Assembly: GCA_035527835.1 (NCBI GenBank)
Contig: DATKZS010000059.1
Location: 1-12,465 of the forward strand
Length of the DNA: 12,465 nucleotides
Source of the DNA: DATKZS01 sp035527835 [NCBI: bacterium]
Lineage (GTDB): Bacteria > RBG-13-61-14
Direction of reading: 5' to 3'
The notes beneath the pieces are model-generated. The model searched no databases. It had not been told where the DNA came from and worked only from the letters and a program-made list of their open reading frames with translations. Position 1 is the first letter of the stretch. Every line of letters begins with the position of its first letter. This document shows positions 1,506 to 12,222 of this stretch, piece after piece. Made by a program: the position numbers and the translations under genes.

Positions 1506-4091
1506 TCAGAACCCGTAGTTCATCTGGTAGAACAGCCCGCTTTCCTCGTCGGACCAGGCCCATTCGGCGGTGATGATGATGTTGGGCGGCACGTGGATGC
1601 GGTAGCTGAAGCCGTAGCCGCCGTGCCAGGGCTGGTCCCAGGTGTCGCGCTCGAACAGGTCGTCGGCCACCATGCCCACGTCGTAGAACAGGGCCGCGTC
1701 CTGGAACTTCCACAGCCGCCAGCGGTACTCGAGGCTCGCGGTCACCATGTCGTTGTCGCGGAAGCGCCTGGAGGCGAAGCCCTTGATCGAGGACGACGAT
1801 CCGATGGTGGTGAGCTCGTAGAAGGGCACGTCGAGGATCCGCCTTCCGTACCAGTCAATCTCGTTGGCGAAGAGGTGGCTCATCTGGAGGCGCGCGGCCA
1901 GGGTCCGGTTCTTGTCCGGGCCGATCAATTTGGTGAGCAGGGTGCGGCGCGGGCCGGCAAGCGAGTCAACGTAGGGGATCGGGTTCAGGAAGTCCGGGTG
2001 CCAGCAGCCGCGCAGGTCAACCGTGGCCCGGGCGTAGTCGTAGCTGGCGCCGAAGATCCCGCTGACCACGTACAGGTCCAGCGACTCGTAGTTCCCGAAC
2101 TTGGGCAGGTTCCTGGCCTCCCGCATGTCGCGGTAGAGCGTGACCGAAAAGCTGTTCAGGTTCCCGCCCTGCATCCCGTACACCGTGCCGCCCCAGCGCG
2201 CGCCCGTGAGCTCGCTTCTCCGGCCGTAGCGCTCCTCGATCGAGGGCACGCCCTCGCCGCCCGAGGCCGGCTGGATCCCGCTCGTGATCGAGATCTGGTT
2301 ATAGCCGACCCGGAAGTCCGCGCCGTAAATGCCCCCGAAATACTTGGAGAAGGTGACGTTGGCCTGCGACTTCTTCCACCAATAATACGTGAGATGGCTA
2401 AGCTCCGAGTCGTTGCCGATGCCGCGGTACGGCTCCGCCGGAAACGACCCGTAGTCCAAAGACACCCGGAACGACTCGACCCCCTTGATGAACCGGAGGT
2501 TGCTGAAGTCCACGCTGTAGGAGTAATAGCCCCGGTCGGTGAACAGGAAGAGGAACCCGAACGAGGTCCCGCCGCCCAGGAAATCTATGTCGGAATAGCT
2601 CAAGCCCGGCCCGACCCCCAAAAGGTACGGGTCAATGATAAAGGCCGGGGACAGGAACTTGTTGATCTGCACCGTCCGCTTCTGCTCCATGAAGGTGGAT
2701 TGCGGCTTCTCTTTCCGGGTGTCGGCCACCGGCTCCGCGTCAGGCCATACGCTCTTTAGCTCGTGGCGCGCGGTCTCGACCGTGAGCGGGTCCTGGTAAA
2801 TCCCGGTAAGCTCGGCTTCCATGCCCGGGCGGTAATCCCGCGGGTCGCCGTACACCGCGAAGCGCACCGGGAACGGAGCGTGGCCGGCCTTTTGCAGCTC
2901 GCGCACGATGTACCCGAACTTGCCGATCATGCCCGGGGTCGTCTCCACCGGGTCGCTCTTGTCATCGTTGTCCGCGTAATAAAGGTCCTGGTACAGGGCG
3001 GTGCGGGGGGCAAGCCCGAGGTGGACCATGATCGTACCCGCCCGGTTCCCGCTCACCGCGGCCCACTCGGTCGGGCCGTAATCCAGGTGCAGCTCCGACG
3101 GGTCGGTGTACCCGTCCACCATAAAGCCTTCCGGATTGTGCTGGCTCACGAACTTCATGCCGCGCGCATCGTCGTTCAGGTCAATCGCCAGGATCAGGCT
3201 GCTCTTGTTGATGTACTCGCCCCAGTTGGCAGCGCTCTCCACTCTAAGATCGTACTCGATGTGCCGGGGGTAAAAATAAACGTGGTTGTACGCCCGCTTC
3301 TGATAGCTGGCCCAGGTCTCCAGGACCGTCTCGAATTCCTTGACCACCCGCACCGGGCCCGCCCGGACCCCGCGGAGGTAATGGTTAAAATCCTGCTCCG
3401 TCAACGGATACGACGCCGCGCCAAAAATGACCTCCACAACCATCTGCAGCTTCATCCGGTCAACCACGTTCGGAAGCAGGCCATCAGCGCCCTTCACCTG
3501 GAAACGCTCGAAGTTCACCGGGTTGCCCGCCGGGTAGGCCGCCACGTAACCGCTCGCCTCAATCGTGTCATCGTTCACGAGCGATACGTAACTCCGCGGC
3601 GACAGCGGAGGGGGCGACGCCATCGCGCATACGTAAACATACGAGGCATCCCCGGAACCAGGATCAACCAGCTTGATCTCTTCGCAGGCCTCGCCGCCCG
3701 CCGGGCCCATGCCGTCGCCCGTCTTCGGGCCCGCGTCCATCGCCATGAACACCAGCTCGTCATCCGGGTCGAAAGAGGGATCGGGGTCGGGACCGGACTC
3801 CGGGCCGCGGTCAAACGCGTAGGAAAGGAAATACTCGCGGGTGAGCGGAGACTTGTAACCCGAGGTCTCCATGCGCTCATCTATCTGGAACGGGATCGCC
3901 TGCCACCCGCCCGACCACGCAAACGCCCGGATCGAGGACGGCGCCTTGCCAAGCAGTGAATCGAGCTGCGCGCCCTCGATCACCACCGGGTCCGCGGTTC
4001 TTGACCACGCGGAAAAAGCCGCGGGAACGTGCGCAAAGATCACGGTCAATAAGGTGCAGACGCCAAGGACCGACCTGGTTTTTACCGCCAC
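1506..4091 (-). CDS. Exported Omp85-superfamily outer-membrane barrel protein with a large unassigned N-terminal domain
   Basis: The GTG at 4089-4091 is chosen because AAGGAGA lies 7 bases upstream and a signal peptide starts directly from it. The frame stays open further upstream to an ATG at 4181, but that would place a 30-residue basic extension before the signal peptide. The mature protein starts around residue 27. Residues about 28-465 are a soluble domain with the segments IPFQIDER (66-73) and DDELVFMAMD (110-119). I cannot assign it, and I see no obvious POTRA repeats. Residues about 475-861 are a beta-barrel of the BamA/TamA type. It includes YRGIGNDS, a conserved loop-6-like IKGF (769-772) followed by RRF, alternating aromatic strands, and a C-terminal phenylalanine (YQMNYGF). 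It should sit in the outer membrane. Whether it secretes or anchors its N-terminal domain, or inserts other proteins, is unknown. It is divergent from the radical SAM gene. Confidence 0.8.
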   Translation of the reverse strand: MAVKTRSVLGVCTLLTVIFAHVPAAFSAWSRTADPVVIEGAQLDSLLGKAPSSIRAFAWSGGWQAIPFQIDERMETSGYKSPLTREYFLSYAFDRGPESGPDPDPSFDPDDELVFMAMDAGPKTGDGMGPAGGEACEEIKLVDPGSGDASYVYVCAMASPPPLSPRSYVSLVNDDTIEASGYVAAYPAGNPVNFERFQVKGADGLLPNVVDRMKLQMVVEVIFGAASYPLTEQDFNHYLRGVRAGPVRVVKEFETVLETWASYQKRAYNHVYFYPRHIEYDLRVESAANWGEYINKSSLILAIDLNDDARGMKFVSQHNPEGFMVDGYTDPSELHLDYGPTEWAAVSGNRAGTIMVHLGLAPRTALYQDLYYADNDDKSDPVETTPGMIGKFGYIVRELQKAGHAPFPVRFAVYGDPRDYRPGMEAELTGIYQDPLTVETARHELKSVWPDAEPVADTRKEKPQSTFMEQKRTVQINKFLSPAFIIDPYLLGVGPGLSYSDIDFLGGGTSFGFLFLFTDRGYYSYSVDFSNLRFIKGVESFRVSLDYGSFPAEPYRGIGNDSELSHLTYYWWKKSQANVTFSKYFGGIYGADFRVGYNQISITSGIQPASGGEGVPSIEERYGRRSELTGARWGGTVYGMQGGNLNSFSVTLYRDMREARNLPKFGNYESLDLYVVSGIFGASYDYARATVDLRGCWHPDFLNPIPYVDSLAGPRRTLLTKLIGPDKNRTLAARLQMSHLFANEIDWYGRRILDVPFYELTTIGSSSSIKGFASRRFRDNDMVTASLEYRWRLWKFQDAALFYDVGMVADDLFERDTWDQPWHGGYGFSYRIHVPPNIIITAEWAWSDEESGLFYQMNYGF

Positions 4092-4098
4092 GGATGGT

Positions 4099-4105
4099 TC
4101 TCCTT
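4099..4105 (-). promoter_or_regulatory. Ribosome-binding site deciding the GTG start of the barrel gene
   Basis: AAGGAGA on the minus strand lies 7 bases before the GTG at 4091. No comparable site precedes the upstream in-frame ATGs at 4181 and 4169, so the shorter 861-aa product is preferred. Confidence 0.7.
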
Positions 4106-4235
4106 CCTTCTTCTTCCGACCCGCTCGATTAATGCCATGCTTTATTGCAAAGCCTGACAATCTAATCATAAACCGCAGCACTAATCAAGAGAAAATTTTC
4201 GTAACCCGCGTCATTATTCCCGGAAGCCCCGGCGA

Positions 4236-4325: not shown

Positions 4326-6197
<1,872 letters not shown>

Positions 6198-6342: not shown

Positions 6343-7176
6343 ATGTGGCGGGATTATCCGGAGCAGGCCAAGGACCGGCTCAAGCTGCTCGATAATTTGC
6401 GGGTGGTGCTGGTCAGCCCGAAGTTCCCGGGCAACCTGGGCATGACCGCGCGGGCCATGAAGAACTGCGCGGTGTCCGACCTGCGCCTGGTGGCGCCGCG
6501 GGCCGAGCTGAACAAGGAGGCCTATCTGCTCGCGCCCGCCGGCTCGGATATTCTCGACACCGCGAAAATCCACGACACGCTGGCCCAAGCGGTCAGCGAC
6601 TGCGGCCTGGTGATCGGGACCACGCGGAGGAAGGGCGTGGCGCGGCGCAACATCATCACCGCGGAACAGGCCGCGGACATGGTCCGGCCGGTGCTGGCCG
6701 TGAACCGGGTCGCGCTGGTCTTCGGGGCCGAGGACAACGGACTATCCAACGATGACCTCTCCATCTGCCACTGGATGCTCAGCATGACGACCGGCTCCGA
6801 AGCCCAGTCCTTTAACCTCTCCCACTCCGTGGCCATCATTTTGTTCCTTATCAACCGCGCCGTGGTGGGAGCCGCGCTGGACCAGCGCAAGCTGGCGACC
6901 ACCCGCAACCTGGAGGCCATGTTCAGCGACATCGAGCGCTTCCTGCTGGAGACCGGGTTCATCCGCAAGGAGGACCCGAAGCGGATCATGACCACGGTGC
7001 GGCAGATCCTGCACCGCTCCGGCCTGTCCGAGCGTGACATCAAGATCCTGCGCGGCACCCTGCGGCAGTCCCGCTGGCGCATCAAGAACCCGGACGCCGA
7101 GCTTTATCCGCGCGACATGAAAATCCGCCTCGGGAGCAGGAAGAGGAAAAAAGGGAAAGGAGCCGAGGATGAGTAG
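6343..7176 (+). CDS. trmJ: TrmJ-like tRNA 2'-O-methyltransferase (SPOUT, TrmH superfamily)
   Basis: This 277-aa protein has the three knotted-fold motifs of SpoU/TrmH methyltransferases. Motif 1 is GNLGMTARAMKN (30-41), with the conserved N31 and R37. Motif 2 is LVFGAEDNGLS (125-135), with E130. Motif 3 is SFNLSHSV (156-163), which closes the S-adenosylmethionine pocket. The C-terminal region (RDIKILRGTLRQ, about 229-240) and the overall length fit TrmJ, which methylates the 2'-OH of nucleotide 32 in the tRNA anticodon loop in the cytoplasm. In motif 2 the residue before the Glu is Ala, where E. coli-type TrmJ has Arg. That position varies in relatives. The start ATG has AGAGGA six bases upstream. 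The tail is lysine-rich, and its last 8 bases overlap the next gene, so the two are probably co-transcribed. Another TrmH-superfamily subfamily is possible but less likely. Confidence 0.8.
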   Translation: MWRDYPEQAKDRLKLLDNLRVVLVSPKFPGNLGMTARAMKNCAVSDLRLVAPRAELNKEAYLLAPAGSDILDTAKIHDTLAQAVSDCGLVIGTTRRKGVARRNIITAEQAADMVRPVLAVNRVALVFGAEDNGLSNDDLSICHWMLSMTTGSEAQSFNLSHSVAIILFLINRAVVGAALDQRKLATTRNLEAMFSDIERFLLETGFIRKEDPKRIMTTVRQILHRSGLSERDIKILRGTLRQSRWRIKNPDAELYPRDMKIRLGSRKRKKGKGAEDE

Positions 7177-9652
7177 GGCGATGGGAAAAGCGGCGGCCGT
7201 CAGAGCGGCCATGTGCGTCATCGCGGCGGCCGTGGTCCTGGCCGCGGGCGCTCCGGGGTTTTCCGCGCGGGGCCAAGCGAAGGGCCTGGGCGCGGTCAAG
7301 GAGGTGAGGCCGGGACCGGACCGCGTCGAGGTCGTGTGCGCGAACGGCGCGGTCAGGGTAGGCATGGCGGGCGACGGCTCGCTGCACGTCGTGGCCACGG
7401 ACGATGCTGAGTTCTCGCGCTTCCCGAGCTTCGCCGTGCTGCCGGAGGTGAGGGAGCGGGCGGTGGAGGTGAAGGAGGAGCCGGAGCGGCTGGTGCTGTC
7501 CGCGGGCCTGCTCACGCTCATCATTGACCGCAAGGACTCGCGCATGACCGTGCTCGATCAATCGGGCGCGGAAATCATCGCGGAGCCGGACGGCGGCGGC
7601 GCCTTCTTCGACGGCGACACCGTGGGCTGCGTGAAGGCGATGCCGGCGGACGAGCATTATTACGGCTTCGGCGAGAAGATGGGCCCGCTTGATCGCCGCG
7701 GCCGCAAGATGATCATGTGGAACACCGACAACGGCTGGTCGCCCAAGAACGACTCGCTCTACCAGTCGCACCCGTACTACCTGGCATTGCGCCAGGGCCG
7801 CGCTTATGGGCTGTTCTTCGATAATACTTTCCGCAGCGTCTTCGACGTGGGCGCGGCAACGCCGGACCTGCTGTCGTTTTGCGCGGCGGGCGGCGAGCTG
7901 GATTACTGGGTCCTGGCCGGGCCCGCGCCCAAGGACGTGCTCACGCGCTACGGGGCTCTGGTCGGGACCGCGCCGCTGCCGCCGAAATGGGCGCTCGGCT
8001 ACCACCAGTGCCGCTACTCGTACCAGGACGAAAAAAAGGTGCGCGAGATCAGGGACGGGTTCATCGAGAACAAGATTCCCGTGGACGCGATCTGGCTCGA
8101 CATCCATTACATGAACGGCTATCGCGTGTTCAGCTTTGACCCCAAGCGCTTCCCCGACCCCGCCGGCCTGATCGCGGAGCTCAAAAAGGACGGCATCCAC
8201 ACCGTGGTAATAGTTGATCCCGGCGTGAAAGTTGATCCGGGATACGCGCCCTATGACGAAGGCATCGCAAAAGATTATTTCGTGCACGGCCTTGACGCTA
8301 AGCCGTTCCGGGCGCAGGTCTGGCCGGGCGACGCCAACTTCCCGGACTTCTACCGGCCCGAGGTGAGACAGTGGTGGGGCGGACTGCACAAGTTCTACAC
8401 GGACCTCGGAATCGCCGGGATCTGGAACGACATGAACGAACCGGCCGGCTGGGACAACTACCTCAAGATCGCCGGCATCCCGCTCGCCTCCCGGCCCGTG
8501 CCCTGGCTCGATATGCGCCACGGCGCCGCGCCGGACCTCGTGCCCCACGCCCGCATCCACAACGTCTATGCGCTGCTGGAGGCCGAGGCAACCTATAGCG
8601 GGCTCATGCAACTCAAGCCGGACGCGCGGCCGTTCGTGCTCACCCGCGCCGGCTACCCCGGCATCGTGCGCCACACCGCCACCTGGACCGGCGACAACCA
8701 CGCCACCTGGGACAACCTGCGCACCGGGCTCACCATGCTCCTCAACATGGGCATGTCGGGCATGGCATTCGTCGGCAACGACATCGGCGGCTTCGGCGGA
8801 GGGCCGTCCCCAGAGCTCTACGCCCGCTGGATCGAGCAGGGCGTGTTCTATCCGTTCTGCCGCACCCACACCGCCTACGGGACCCCGCCGCAGGAGCCGT
8901 GGTCATACGGCCCCGAGGTCACCGCCATCAGCCGCGACGCCATCGCCCTCCGCTATGAGCTCATGCCCTACATCTACTCGCTGTTCGAGGAATCCACCCG
9001 CACCAACTGGCCCATCATACGGCCCATGGTCTTCGAGTTCCCGGACGACGACAAGGTCACGAACATGTCCGACCAGTTCATGCTCGGCCCCTCGCTCCTG
9101 GTGGCGCCGGTGGTGGAGAAGGGAGCGGTGAAAAGGACTGTGTACCTGCCGATAGGGACCTGGTACGATTTTTACACCATAGCCAAGTTTCACGGCCCGC
9201 AGGAGATAGAGGTTGACGCGCCGCTCTCCAAGACGCCGATGTTCGTAAGGGCTGGTGGAATCATTCCCGTGGAGATTGATTTAAAGCGTTATCATGAAGA
9301 CCCTTGGGCCGGCATAAAGATCAAAGTCTACCCTGGTCCTGAGGAAATGTCGTTCACTCTTTATGAGGATGACGGATCGAGCTTTGGTTATCAGAAAGGC
9401 TTATTTGCTAAGACGGAAATTGTTGGGAAGCCTGATCCTAAAGGTTATGAGGTTTCGATAAAGCCTCATAAGGGAGGGTTCAAGTCGCCTGTCCCGCATT
9501 ACCTATTTATTATAGATTGCAATGAATGCGGCGTTATTGGAGAGAGCTTTGGCCGTGCTTATGATGGTGTTGGCATTGATTCCTCCCATAATGCATGCAT
9601 TTTCCACGTGACGGAAGGGGAAACATGGCTAGTAGAGCCGAACCACGATTAA
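7169..9652 (+). CDS. Exported GH31 alpha-glucosidase, copy 1
   Basis: This 827-aa protein begins with a signal peptide (hydrophobic core about 15-28, possible cleavage after FSA). It belongs to glycoside hydrolase family 31. An N-terminal beta-sandwich (HYYGFGEK about 167-174) precedes the catalytic barrel. The barrel contains AIWLDIHYM, the nucleophile D421 in GIWNDMNEP, the likely acid/base D509 in TWTGDN, and FVGNDIGGF. C-terminal beta-domains follow (FTLYEDDG). The pattern fits retaining alpha-glucosidases rather than alpha-xylosidases, acting outside the cytoplasm. Its start overlaps trmJ and has AAAGGAG six bases upstream (7156-7162). From about 9246 to the stop, codon use changes sharply. 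My hand count gives about 45% G/C at third positions, against mostly G/C before that. The tail is still in frame but diverges from copy 2 after FTLYEDDG. Confidence 0.93.
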   Translation: MSRAMGKAAAVRAAMCVIAAAVVLAAGAPGFSARGQAKGLGAVKEVRPGPDRVEVVCANGAVRVGMAGDGSLHVVATDDAEFSRFPSFAVLPEVRERAVEVKEEPERLVLSAGLLTLIIDRKDSRMTVLDQSGAEIIAEPDGGGAFFDGDTVGCVKAMPADEHYYGFGEKMGPLDRRGRKMIMWNTDNGWSPKNDSLYQSHPYYLALRQGRAYGLFFDNTFRSVFDVGAATPDLLSFCAAGGELDYWVLAGPAPKDVLTRYGALVGTAPLPPKWALGYHQCRYSYQDEKKVREIRDGFIENKIPVDAIWLDIHYMNGYRVFSFDPKRFPDPAGLIAELKKDGIHTVVIVDPGVKVDPGYAPYDEGIAKDYFVHGLDAKPFRAQVWPGDANFPDFYRPEVRQWWGGLHKFYTDLGIAGIWNDMNEPAGWDNYLKIAGIPLASRPVPWLDMRHGAAPDLVPHARIHNVYALLEAEATYSGLMQLKPDARPFVLTRAGYPGIVRHTATWTGDNHATWDNLRTGLTMLLNMGMSGMAFVGNDIGGFGGGPSPELYARWIEQGVFYPFCRTHTAYGTPPQEPWSYGPEVTAISRDAIALRYELMPYIYSLFEESTRTNWPIIRPMVFEFPDDDKVTNMSDQFMLGPSLLVAPVVEKGAVKRTVYLPIGTWYDFYTIAKFHGPQEIEVDAPLSKTPMFVRAGGIIPVEIDLKRYHEDPWAGIKIKVYPGPEEMSFTLYEDDGSSFGYQKGLFAKTEIVGKPDPKGYEVSIKPHKGGFKSPVPHYLFIIDCNECGVIGESFGRAYDGVGIDSSHNACIFHVTEGETWLVEPNHD

Positions 9653-9729
9653 CGTGACGGCACAATCCAAAGTGGCCATGACTCCGCGGTATGGCTTAAC
9701 AAGTTCAGGTTTGTCGAAAGGGGACGAAG

Positions 9730-12222
9730 ATGTTGAGATCGGCTTTTAGAAAAGCGGCGAGTGTAAGCGCGGCCGCGCTGGTGATCGTTCTGGCAATAGG
9801 TCTGTCCGGCGCGGGCCGGCCCAAGGCCGAGGCGCTGGGCGCGGTCACGGACGTGCGGGTGAAGGACGGTTACGTGGAGCTCGCGTGCAAGAACGGCGTG
9901 ATGCGGCTGTCGTCGCGCGGCGACGGCGTGCTCCGGGTGCGGGCCACGCATCAGACCGCGTTCTCGGACCTGCCCAGCTTTGCGCTCAAGCCGGACGTAG
10001 CGCCGGACGCGGCGCCCGCCATGAGCGAAAACGCGGACAAGGTCGTCCTGACCACGCCTCTGATCCGGGCCGAGGTGGACCGGCACACGGGCAACGTCAA
10101 CTTTTTAGATGGCGCGGGCAATGACCTCGCGGAGGAGCCGGCGGACGGCGGGATTTTCTTCGAGGGCGACGGCGTGAGCTGCGTGAAGGCCATGCCGCCG
10201 GACGAGCATTATTACGGGTTCGGCGAGAAGACCGGCCCGCTCGACAAGCGCGGCACCAGGATGATCATGTGGAACTCCGACAACATGTACACCACGAAAA
10301 CCGACCCCATGTACCAGTCGCACCCGTTCTATCTGGCCGTCCGCTCCGGCCGCGCTTACGGCCTCTTCTTCGACAACACCTACAAGGGCGTGTTCGACGT
10401 GGGCAAGTCCGACCCGGACATTTTAAGCTTTTCCGCGGCCGGCGGCGAGATGAACTACTACGTGCTGGCCGGGCCATCTCCGCGCGACGTGCTCACGCGC
10501 TACGGCTCGCTGGTGGGGACCATGAACCTGCCGCCGCTGTGGGGCCTGGGCTACCACCAGTGCCGCTATTCTTACAAGACGGCCACGCGGGTGCGCGAGA
10601 TCCGGGACGGGTTCCAGAAGAACGACATCCCGCTCGACGCGATTTACCTGGACATCCACTACATGGACGATTACCGCGTGTTCACCTTCGACCCCCAGCG
10701 CTTTCCGGACCCGAAGGCACTTACCGCCGAGCTCAAGCGCGACGGCATCCACACCGTGGTCATCGTTGATCCCGGCGTCAAGAAGGACCCGGGCTACTAC
10801 GTGTACGAGCAGGGTCTGGCCGGCAATTACTTCGTGCCCGGGCAAGACGGCAAGCCCTTCTCCGCCTGGGTCTGGCCCAAGGAGTCCAACTTCCCGGACT
10901 TTTACCGCGCCGACGTCAGGAAGTGGTGGGGCGGACTCCACAAGTTCTACACCGACCTCGGCATTGACGGCATCTGGAACGACATGAACGAGCTCGCCGG
11001 CTGGAAGCGGGAGATTCGGATCAGTGACGTGCCCATACCCATGGGCAAGCCCGACTGGGAAGAGATGGTCCACGGCGCGCCGCCCAACACCCTGCCCCAC
11101 GCCGTGGTCCGGAACGCTTACGCGAACCTCGAAGCGCAGGCCACCTACGACGGCCTGATCGCGCAACGTCCCGACGAGCGGCCGCTCATCATCTCGCGCG
11201 CGGGGTATCCGGGGTTGCAGCGCTACTCGCTGATCTGGACCGGCGACAACACCGCGAGCTGGGACCAGATGGCCATGGGCGAGACCATGCTCCTCAACCT
11301 GGGCCTGACCGGGCTTAGCTGGGTCGGCAACGACGTGGGCGGGTTCATGGGCGCGCCGTCCAACGAGCTTTACGTGCGCTGGCTCACGCAGGGCATCTTC
11401 TATCCGTTCTGCCGCAACCACACCGCGATCAAGATGCCGGACAAGGAGCCGTGGTCGTTCACCCCCGAGATCACGGACCTCTCCCGCGACCTCATCAACT
11501 TCCGCTACCGCCTGCTGCCCTATACCTATGCCGTGTTCGAGGAATCCACGCGCCGAAACTGGCCGGTGATGCGGGCCATGGTCTTCGAGTTCCCGGCCGA
11601 CCCCGCCGTCGCCAACATGTCCGACCAGTTCATGCTCGGCGAGTGGCTGCTGGCGGCGCCGGTGATCGAGAAGGGCCGCGTGAAGAAGATCGTGCATTTC
11701 CCGGCCGGCAACTGGTACGACTTCTTCAGCGGGCAAAAATATTCAGGGCCCGCGGACGTCGAGGTGGACGCGCCGCTGGGCAAGTTCCCGCTCTTCGCCA
11801 AGGAAGGCGCGATCATCCCGCTGGCCCCGGTGATGCGTCACACCGGCGAGAAGCCGTGGGACCCGCTCACGGTCAAGGTGTTCCCGGCGGCGGGGCCGAC
11901 GTCGTTCACGCTTTACGAGGACGACGGGGAGAGCTTCTCGTATCGGAGCGGGCAGTGGGCGCGGACCACGTTCCGCTGTACGCCGATAAACAACGGCGTC
12001 GAGGTCAGGCTCGAGCCGAGGGCCGGCGCGTTCGATCCGCAAAGAACCGGCATCGAGCTCCAGGTCCACGGCCGGAAGCCGGAGGCCCAGGTCACGCTCC
12101 TTGACGACACGGGCCAACAACTGCCCCCGCCCGCCGCCACCTTTGACCGCGCCTCCAACGTGTGGCTCATAAAAATACCCGGCGGCGGAGACGGGCTCAC
12201 GGTGAGGATCGCGGGACCGTAG
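9730..12222 (+). CDS. Exported GH31 alpha-glucosidase, copy 2
   Basis: This 830-aa paralogue of the preceding gene lies 77 bases downstream. It has its own signal peptide (hydrophobic core about 12-28) and an AAGGGGA site before the ATG. All family 31 elements are present: HYYGFGEK, AIYLDIHYM, the nucleophile D418 in GIWNDMNEL, the acid/base D506 in IWTGDN, and WVGNDVGGF. The two catalytic aspartates are 88 residues apart, exactly as in copy 1. By eye about two thirds of residues are identical in the central region, so the pair arose by an old tandem duplication. The proline that usually follows the DMNE motif is leucine here, and the loop after it differs (KREIRISDV against DNYLKIAGI). A change in substrate preference is therefore possible. 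Codon use is uniformly GC-rich to the stop, unlike copy 1. Confidence 0.93.
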   Translation: MLRSAFRKAASVSAAALVIVLAIGLSGAGRPKAEALGAVTDVRVKDGYVELACKNGVMRLSSRGDGVLRVRATHQTAFSDLPSFALKPDVAPDAAPAMSENADKVVLTTPLIRAEVDRHTGNVNFLDGAGNDLAEEPADGGIFFEGDGVSCVKAMPPDEHYYGFGEKTGPLDKRGTRMIMWNSDNMYTTKTDPMYQSHPFYLAVRSGRAYGLFFDNTYKGVFDVGKSDPDILSFSAAGGEMNYYVLAGPSPRDVLTRYGSLVGTMNLPPLWGLGYHQCRYSYKTATRVREIRDGFQKNDIPLDAIYLDIHYMDDYRVFTFDPQRFPDPKALTAELKRDGIHTVVIVDPGVKKDPGYYVYEQGLAGNYFVPGQDGKPFSAWVWPKESNFPDFYRADVRKWWGGLHKFYTDLGIDGIWNDMNELAGWKREIRISDVPIPMGKPDWEEMVHGAPPNTLPHAVVRNAYANLEAQATYDGLIAQRPDERPLIISRAGYPGLQRYSLIWTGDNTASWDQMAMGETMLLNLGLTGLSWVGNDVGGFMGAPSNELYVRWLTQGIFYPFCRNHTAIKMPDKEPWSFTPEITDLSRDLINFRYRLLPYTYAVFEESTRRNWPVMRAMVFEFPADPAVANMSDQFMLGEWLLAAPVIEKGRVKKIVHFPAGNWYDFFSGQKYSGPADVEVDAPLGKFPLFAKEGAIIPLAPVMRHTGEKPWDPLTVKVFPAAGPTSFTLYEDDGESFSYRSGQWARTTFRCTPINNGVEVRLEPRAGAFDPQRTGIELQVHGRKPEAQVTLLDDTGQQLPPPAATFDRASNVWLIKIPGGGDGLTVRIAGP

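What the first reader, a model, noticed from the sequence alone, without database searches (positions are those of the whole stretch)
9246..9652. Abrupt codon-use and GC shift in the last ~400 bases of GH31 copy 1
From about 9246 the gene switches from mostly G/C third positions to about 45% G/C by hand count, with many T-ending codons (cct, ggt, gat, tat) that are rare elsewhere in the window. It stays in frame and homologous to copy 2 as far as FTLYEDDG, then the protein tail is different. This looks like replacement of the 3' end by recombination with a lower-GC homologue. A chimeric assembly join is the main alternative.
Basis: seen in the sequence. Interest (0 to 1): 0.6.

Follow-up and report, generated by a model that had tools for sequence, protein, structure and literature searches.

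The report
Foreign-looking tail on a sugar-cutting enzyme
The last 135 codons of one bacterial alpha-glucosidase-like gene are written in a clearly different codon style from the rest, most likely because that end was swapped in from another gene by recombination, a known kind of event whose donor was not found.

Summary
GH31 copy 1 (7169-9652) has GC3 0.884 up to 9244 and 0.437 from 9245; the best change-point is 9245 (LR 120 against at most 14.9 in 300 shuffles). It is the most extreme of 93 aligned GH31 sequences, and no 3' end among 215 usable ORFs of a related genome comes near it. The tail reads as constrained protein: DUF5110 matches at 4.5e-15; only 4 of 20,000 shuffles lack in-frame stops. 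Relatives are nearer to copy 1 than copy 2 before the break (69:43 columns) and nearer to copy 2 after it (9:24; Fisher p 6.5e-4). Composition is host-like again in copy 2, so a chimeric assembly needs two joins within about 500 bases. I favour within-gene replacement of the 3' end. Against it: no donor in about 1,780 genomes, copy 2's tail is still the best-scoring relative, and tree tests are indecisive. In-situ divergence and chimera stay open. The kind is known; a related genome shows a similar island in a restriction enzyme's specificity region. Interest is modest.

The parts
7169..9244 (+). Host-like body of GH31 copy 1: mutarotase-like domain, TIM barrel, first C-terminal domain
   Evidence: Pfam PF13802, PF01055, PF21365; GC3 0.884
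9122..9244 (+). Mildly softened stretch before the break (GC3 0.76)
   Evidence: Segmentation; not in the best-BIC model
9245..9649 (+). Low-GC3 3' tail of GH31 copy 1 (135 codons): DUF5110 and terminal strands
   Evidence: Change-point 9245, GC3 0.437; DUF5110 E 4.5e-15
9239..9268 (+). Junction stretch MFVRAGGIIP, where the codon style flips; it lies at the end of the PF21365 match (residues 614-699) and before the DUF5110 match (716-773)
   Evidence: Codon list; domain limits; P690 just before it invariant and G696 in it nearly invariant among 45 sequences
9653..9729 (.). Spacer between the two GH31 genes, GC 0.532, like three other spacers of the window (0.506-0.545); likely zone of the second junction
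   Evidence: placing the junction here is inference; the first 24 codons of copy 2 have GC3 0.54, so it could lie slightly further on
9730..12222 (+). GH31 copy 2, GC3 0.897, 58% identical to copy 1 over 751 aligned positions
6343..7176 (+). TrmJ-family RNA methyltransferase, next to a GH31 gene in 2 of the 3 genomes of the related group
   Evidence: TIGR00050 above cut-off; neighbourhood

Best explanation
The 3' end of GH31 copy 1 was replaced by homology-assisted recombination with an incoming fragment of a divergent, lower-GC GH31 gene. The upstream crossover fell in the conserved FVRAGGIIP stretch at about 9245 and kept the frame; the downstream one fell between the stop codon and the first codons of copy 2 (about 9650-9800). 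The product remains a full-length GH31 protein whose DUF5110 and terminal strands are foreign. Shown: the composition break, the intact constrained ORF, the change of affinity at the break, and the return to host-like composition in copy 2. Inferred: recombination as the cause, an unsampled donor, the place of the second crossover, and continued enzyme activity.
For: Break LR 120 at 9245. Tail-minus-body GC3 is -0.447 against a mean of -0.075 over 93 GH31 sequences (SD 0.065, copy 1 included), z -7.2 against the other 92. In 215 usable ORFs of related genome G003 the lowest 3'-end shift is -0.196. The tail is constrained: 4 of 20,000 shuffles have no in-frame stop, with 8 and 14 stops in the other two forward frames; Y732, D734 and G736 of YEDDG are kept. 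Relatives' affinity reverses at the break: 69:43 columns in residues 241-692, 9:24 in 693-772, p 6.5e-4; taken one by one, p is 1.5e-4 (L085), 0.0048 (L087), 0.12 (L086) and 0.14 (L001). End branch of copy 1 is 0.41 in the body tree but 2.15 and 2.79 in the tail trees; copy 2 has 0.64, 0.47 and 0.70. With the same 45 sequences, residues 781 to the end model at pLDDT block means of 38-58 in copy 1 and 89-94 in copy 2. The copy 1 model still aligns to GH31 structures out to residue 824. Method check: in G003 the strongest any-window island (-0.459) lies in an Eco57I-like restriction-methylase, over its distal methylase part and specificity domain, a region type for which domain movement is reported (PMC3077401, PMC3983042; listing and abstract starts only).
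Against: No donor: in 1,785 genome searches (1,778 distinct) the best tail match has 43.1 bits, against 58 for copy 2's tail and 316 for itself in a local comparison. Tail trees put copy 1 weakly beside copy 2 (86/68; 94/61); AU p values of 0.47-0.55 reject no placement tried. By score ratio, the loss of tail similarity between the copies is not unusual: 31% of 215 gene pairs of comparable body likeness are as low or lower. GH31 tails diverge fast in general and on average end with a slightly lower GC3. Copy 1 has a second low-GC3 patch inside its barrel (8207-8299), so not every dip marks foreign DNA.
Confidence: 0.6

Rival explanations
1. Assembly chimera: an assembler crossed from the host gene into a lower-GC organism's GH31 homologue at a shared conserved stretch, and back again before copy 2.
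For: No whole genome is held for the window and its best relative in the genome collection is 48% identical, so it is probably a metagenome contig (inference). Chimeric contigs between related sequences are a described fault of metagenome assembly (PMC7299287, passages). The break lies in a conserved stretch.
Against: It needs two switches within about 500 bases, because copy 2 is host-like in GC3 and the two GH31 bodies are sisters at 100% SH-aLRT. The TrmJ-GH31 adjacency on the left flank also occurs in L001 and L097. The frame is exact. The codon style flips within a codon or two, leaving little room for a shared k-mer (inference).
Confidence: 0.2
2. In-situ change: the C-terminal domain of copy 1 lost constraint after duplication and diverged fast, and its codons drifted to an AT-richer local equilibrium.
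For: Copy 2's tail is still the best-scoring relative and weak sister. Four spacers have GC 0.51-0.55. The tail's synonymous choice fits a flat model as well as any of the 93 genes tested. Residues 773-827 share only 9% identity with copy 2 and model poorly.
Against: Relaxed protein constraint does not by itself move synonymous sites from 0.88 to 0.44 (inference), while residues 693-771 keep YEDDG and a clear DUF5110 match. A step at 9245 is in the best model, a softened stretch before it is not. GC 0.453 at 9301-9600 is below the four spacers measured. A spell as untranslated DNA would leave stops.
Confidence: 0.17
3. A chance fluctuation or an ordinary gene-end effect.
For: A mild 3' drop is common in GH31 genes (mean -0.075), and short patches occur, such as 8207-8299 and a 30-codon low of 0.43 in the Omp85 gene.
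Against: LR 120 against at most 14.9 in shuffles; z -7.2 among GH31 sequences; no 3' end as extreme in 215 ORFs.
Confidence: 0.02

Closest known systems
Within-gene (fragmentary) lateral genetic transfer in prokaryotes (PMC2639706, abstract and section list seen; PMC3212841, passages seen)
   Same: A recombination break inside a coding gene, with part of the gene of another origin. PMC3212841 counts 678 of 5,282 gene sets with observable breakpoints within E. coli and Shigella.
   Different: Those studies compare orthologous sets and see breakpoints in alignments; here the break rests on one sequence's composition and affinity, with no donor.
Target-recognition-domain replacement in restriction-modification enzymes
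   Same: A low-GC3 block set in frame in a high-GC3 gene; a similar signature in G003 gene L163:3200-6208, Eco57I and TaqI_C domains.
   Different: There the swapped part sets DNA specificity (recalled); the GH31 C-terminal sandwich is not known to me as a swap target.
GH31 alpha-glucosidase family (Pfam PF01055, PF13802, PF21365, PF17137)
   Same: Full domain order in both copies; the copy 1 model matches MalA 2g3m (Z 44.6) and FjDex31A 6jr8 (Z 44.3).
   Different: Residues 773-827 of copy 1 share 9% identity with copy 2 and, searched alone, found no significant relative among the aligned tails.

Membership tests
GH31 glycoside hydrolase | GH31 TIM barrel with the other family domains | tested here: met
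   PF01055 1e-121, PF13802 3.5e-35, PF21365 3.6e-30, PF17137 6.9e-14
GH31 glycoside hydrolase | Two catalytic aspartates (roles recalled, not tested): in WNDMNE and WTGDN | tested here: met
   D421 and D509 are invariant columns in 45 sequences
GH31 glycoside hydrolase | Enzyme activity and substrate | not testable with these tools
   NCBIfam MalA, alpha-xylosidase and alpha-glucosidase models match below their cut-offs, so the substrate is open
Within-gene lateral transfer | A breakpoint inside the coding sequence | tested here: met
   GC3 change-point 9245, affinity reversal
Within-gene lateral transfer | Different tree position on the two sides | tested here: inconclusive
   Body: copies 1 and 2 sisters at 100% SH-aLRT; tail: weakly sisters, long branch, AU p 0.47-0.55
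Within-gene lateral transfer | An identified donor lineage | tested here: inconclusive
   None in 1,785 genome searches; best 43.1 bits; most phyla not sampled
Assembly chimera | Coverage or spanning-read break | not testable with these tools
   No reads are held

The most novel reading that the evidence does not exclude
The C-terminal DUF5110 module of tandem GH31 enzymes in this group is an exchangeable cassette: recombination at the conserved FVRAGGIIP seam lets bacteria re-tail sugar enzymes as restriction enzymes re-tail their specificity domains.
Probability: 0.07. Interest if true: 0.5.

Novelty: new member of a known kind. Interest (0 to 1): 0.27.

Why it matters
If the replacement is real, it is a clean example of a domain-sized patch entering one of two tandem enzyme copies, with a visible seam, in a little-known bacterial group. 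It shows how a duplicated sugar enzyme can gain a new C-terminal module, and offers a concrete pair (copy 1, copy 2) for testing what the DUF5110 region does. If it is a chimera, it is a warning about mosaic enzymes in metagenome contigs.

Tried and rejected
Overlapping or antisense gene as the cause: apart from copy 1 itself, the ORFs lying mainly inside 9245-9652 have at most 43 codons (minimum 30). Structured RNA: no Rfam match at gathering threshold in the window. Promoter or terminator: in 9000-9900, one promoter-like match against 0.6 expected, no terminator against 0.9 expected. Repeat-mediated rearrangement with copy 2: the repeat search (20 nt or more) listed direct repeats in copy 1 only up to 8917, with their copy 2 counterparts, and no inverted repeats. 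Plasmid source: 3 weak partial matches, 35-43% identity. Viral contigs: 2 stretches matched a pattern, none a relative of the tail. A codon-usage match to a donor: none of the 93 GH31 genes tested beat a flat model.

Rows dropped or chosen: 94 GH31 ORFs were extracted and one of 519 codons dropped, leaving 93, in which L086 and L097 are the same gene. The body tree and first tail tree used 69 of 93; I left out by choice L097 and 23 cyanobacterial rows; the second tail tree used 33. In the control genome, 45 of 277 ORFs were dropped for N letters and 17 for low GC3. An apparent outlier of an earlier run was an N run. Of the six strongest any-window shifts listed I inspected four: L163 looks real, the other three (L156, L170, L157) look to me like false N-terminal extensions or a wrong frame. 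By raw identity over the trimmed tail alignment the nearest row to copy 1 was L069 (31%), not copy 2; by BLAST and phmmer score and by tree path it is copy 2. The papers search for GH31 with DUF5110 and C-terminal domain found 0, and a looser one had nothing on GH31 tail swaps in the 8 rows shown of 1,025. A search with the name Candidatus Lernaellota was a recalled guess at the group; nothing here shows that the window belongs to it.

Full report
What was checked. The window holds two tandem GH31 genes (7169-9652 and 9730-12222) after a TrmJ-family methyltransferase, a radical SAM gene and an Omp85-like gene. Copy 1's GC3 is 0.884 to base 9244 and 0.437 from 9245 to the stop; the likelihood ratio for one break is 120, against at most 14.9 in 300 shuffles and 9-21 for the best break in three other window genes. 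The shift also affects codon positions 1 and 2, and 300-base GC falls to 0.453. A suffix log-likelihood over codon use peaks at the same base, though its alternative was fitted to the tail. The best-BIC model also holds a 31-codon patch at 8207-8299 with GC3 0.48.

How unusual it is. In an alignment of 93 GH31 sequences, cut at the same column, the 3' part has on average GC3 0.075 lower than the body, SD 0.065 with copy 1 included; copy 1 has -0.447, z -7.2 against the other 92, and the next lowest is -0.191. Of 240 ORFs of 400 codons or more in the window and the loci then held, copy 1 has the largest 3'-end drop. In 41 stretches (647 kb) of G003, a genome of the small group nearest to the window, 277 ORFs of 270 codons or more were found; 45 with N letters and 17 with low GC3 were dropped, leaving 215: no 3' end falls by more than 0.196. 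One gene there has an internal island nearly as strong as copy 1's (-0.459 against -0.461 for the worst 130-codon window): the distal methylase part and TaqI-like specificity domain of an Eco57I-like enzyme. Movement of such specificity regions is reported (search listing and abstract starts of PMC3077401 and PMC3983042), so I take this as a positive control for the signature; it also shows that such islands are rare but not unique in the group.

The tail is real protein. It matches DUF5110 at 4.5e-15 and five distinct GH31 sequences of known structure at E of 2.1e-5 or better. Shuffled tail bases avoid in-frame stops in 4 of 20,000 trials. The invariant YEDDG positions are kept. With the same 45 sequences (2 from the window, 43 of the 80 loci), AlphaFold2 gives copy 1 a mean pLDDT of 87, with a dip at 701-720 (65-75), confident at 721-770, and poor from 781 on (38-58); copy 2 gets 92 and is confident to its end. 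The copy 1 model aligns with GH31 structures from residue 37 to 824 (6jr8, Z 44.3, rmsd 2.0, 764 aligned). So the last part is divergent but placed as a normal GH31 tail.

Where the tail belongs. In the body, copies 1 and 2 are sisters (60% identity, 100% SH-aLRT), next to genes of G001-G003. In the tail, copy 1 and copy 2 share 40% over 79 residues, while copy 2 shares 49% over 91 with L085 of G003. Counting columns, four relatives (L085, L001, L087, L086) favour copy 1 over copy 2 by 69:43 in residues 241-692 and copy 2 by 24:9 in residues 693-772 (Fisher 6.5e-4); taken alone, L085 and L087 are significant (1.5e-4, 0.0048), L001 and L086 are not (0.14, 0.12). The end branch of copy 1 is 0.41 in the body tree and 2.15 and 2.79 in the tail trees. 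These fit replacement by a divergent homologue. But the tail trees still put it weakly beside copy 2 (86/68, 94/61), AU tests give p 0.47-0.55, and among 215 gene pairs of similar body likeness 31% have tails as unlike or more so. The protein evidence is supportive, not conclusive.

Search for a donor. The tail was searched in 18, 7, 343, 347, 350, 299, 227 and 194 genomes (1,785 searches, 1,778 distinct genomes). The best match has 43.1 bits, in the Calothrix genome of L066; in a local comparison copy 2's tail has 58 and the tail itself 316. Plasmids gave 3 weak matches, viral contigs none.

Chimera or nature. No reads are held. A chimera would need two switches in about 500 bases, since the spacer has GC 0.532, like the three others measured (0.506-0.545), and copy 2 is host-like, save for its first 24 codons (GC3 0.54). 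The flanks belong together, because TrmJ sits beside a GH31 gene in G001 and G002, 2 of the 3 genomes of that group. That lowers but does not remove this option.

Reading. I hold that the 3' end was replaced by recombination at the conserved FVRAGGIIP stretch (0.60), over chimera (0.20) and in-situ divergence (0.17). The seam lies close to a domain border (PF21365 ends at residue 699, DUF5110 starts at 716). Within-gene transfer in prokaryotes is established (PMC2639706, abstract; PMC3212841, passages), so the finding is a new member of a known kind. The effect on the enzyme is untested.

Noticed in passing
window 8207-8299: A second, short low-GC3 patch (31 codons, 0.48) inside the copy 1 barrel; the DNA at 8038-8245 is still 77% identical to copy 2. 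It may be chance or a shorter tract.
   Followed up: partly
L163:3200-6208 (+), genome G003: An Eco57I-like restriction-methylase gene with a low-GC3 block (about codons 640-920, GC3 0.10-0.35 in 40-codon bins) over the distal methylase part and TaqI-like specificity domain; probably a swapped specificity region.
   Followed up: partly
window 4326-6197 (+): The radical SAM gene matches TIGR03975 (RiPP maturation radical SAM C-methyltransferase) at 594 bits against a cut-off of 282. No precursor peptide was looked for.
   Followed up: no
L097 (genome G002, contig C675): GH31 coding sequence lies on both sides of the TrmJ gene here (one side cut by the contig end), unlike the TrmJ-GH31-GH31 order of the window; the linkage of TrmJ and GH31 recurs in 2 of 3 genomes of the group.
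   Followed up: partly
window 1506-4181 (-): Omp85-superfamily gene of 891 codons with a local 30-codon low of GC3 0.43.
   Followed up: no
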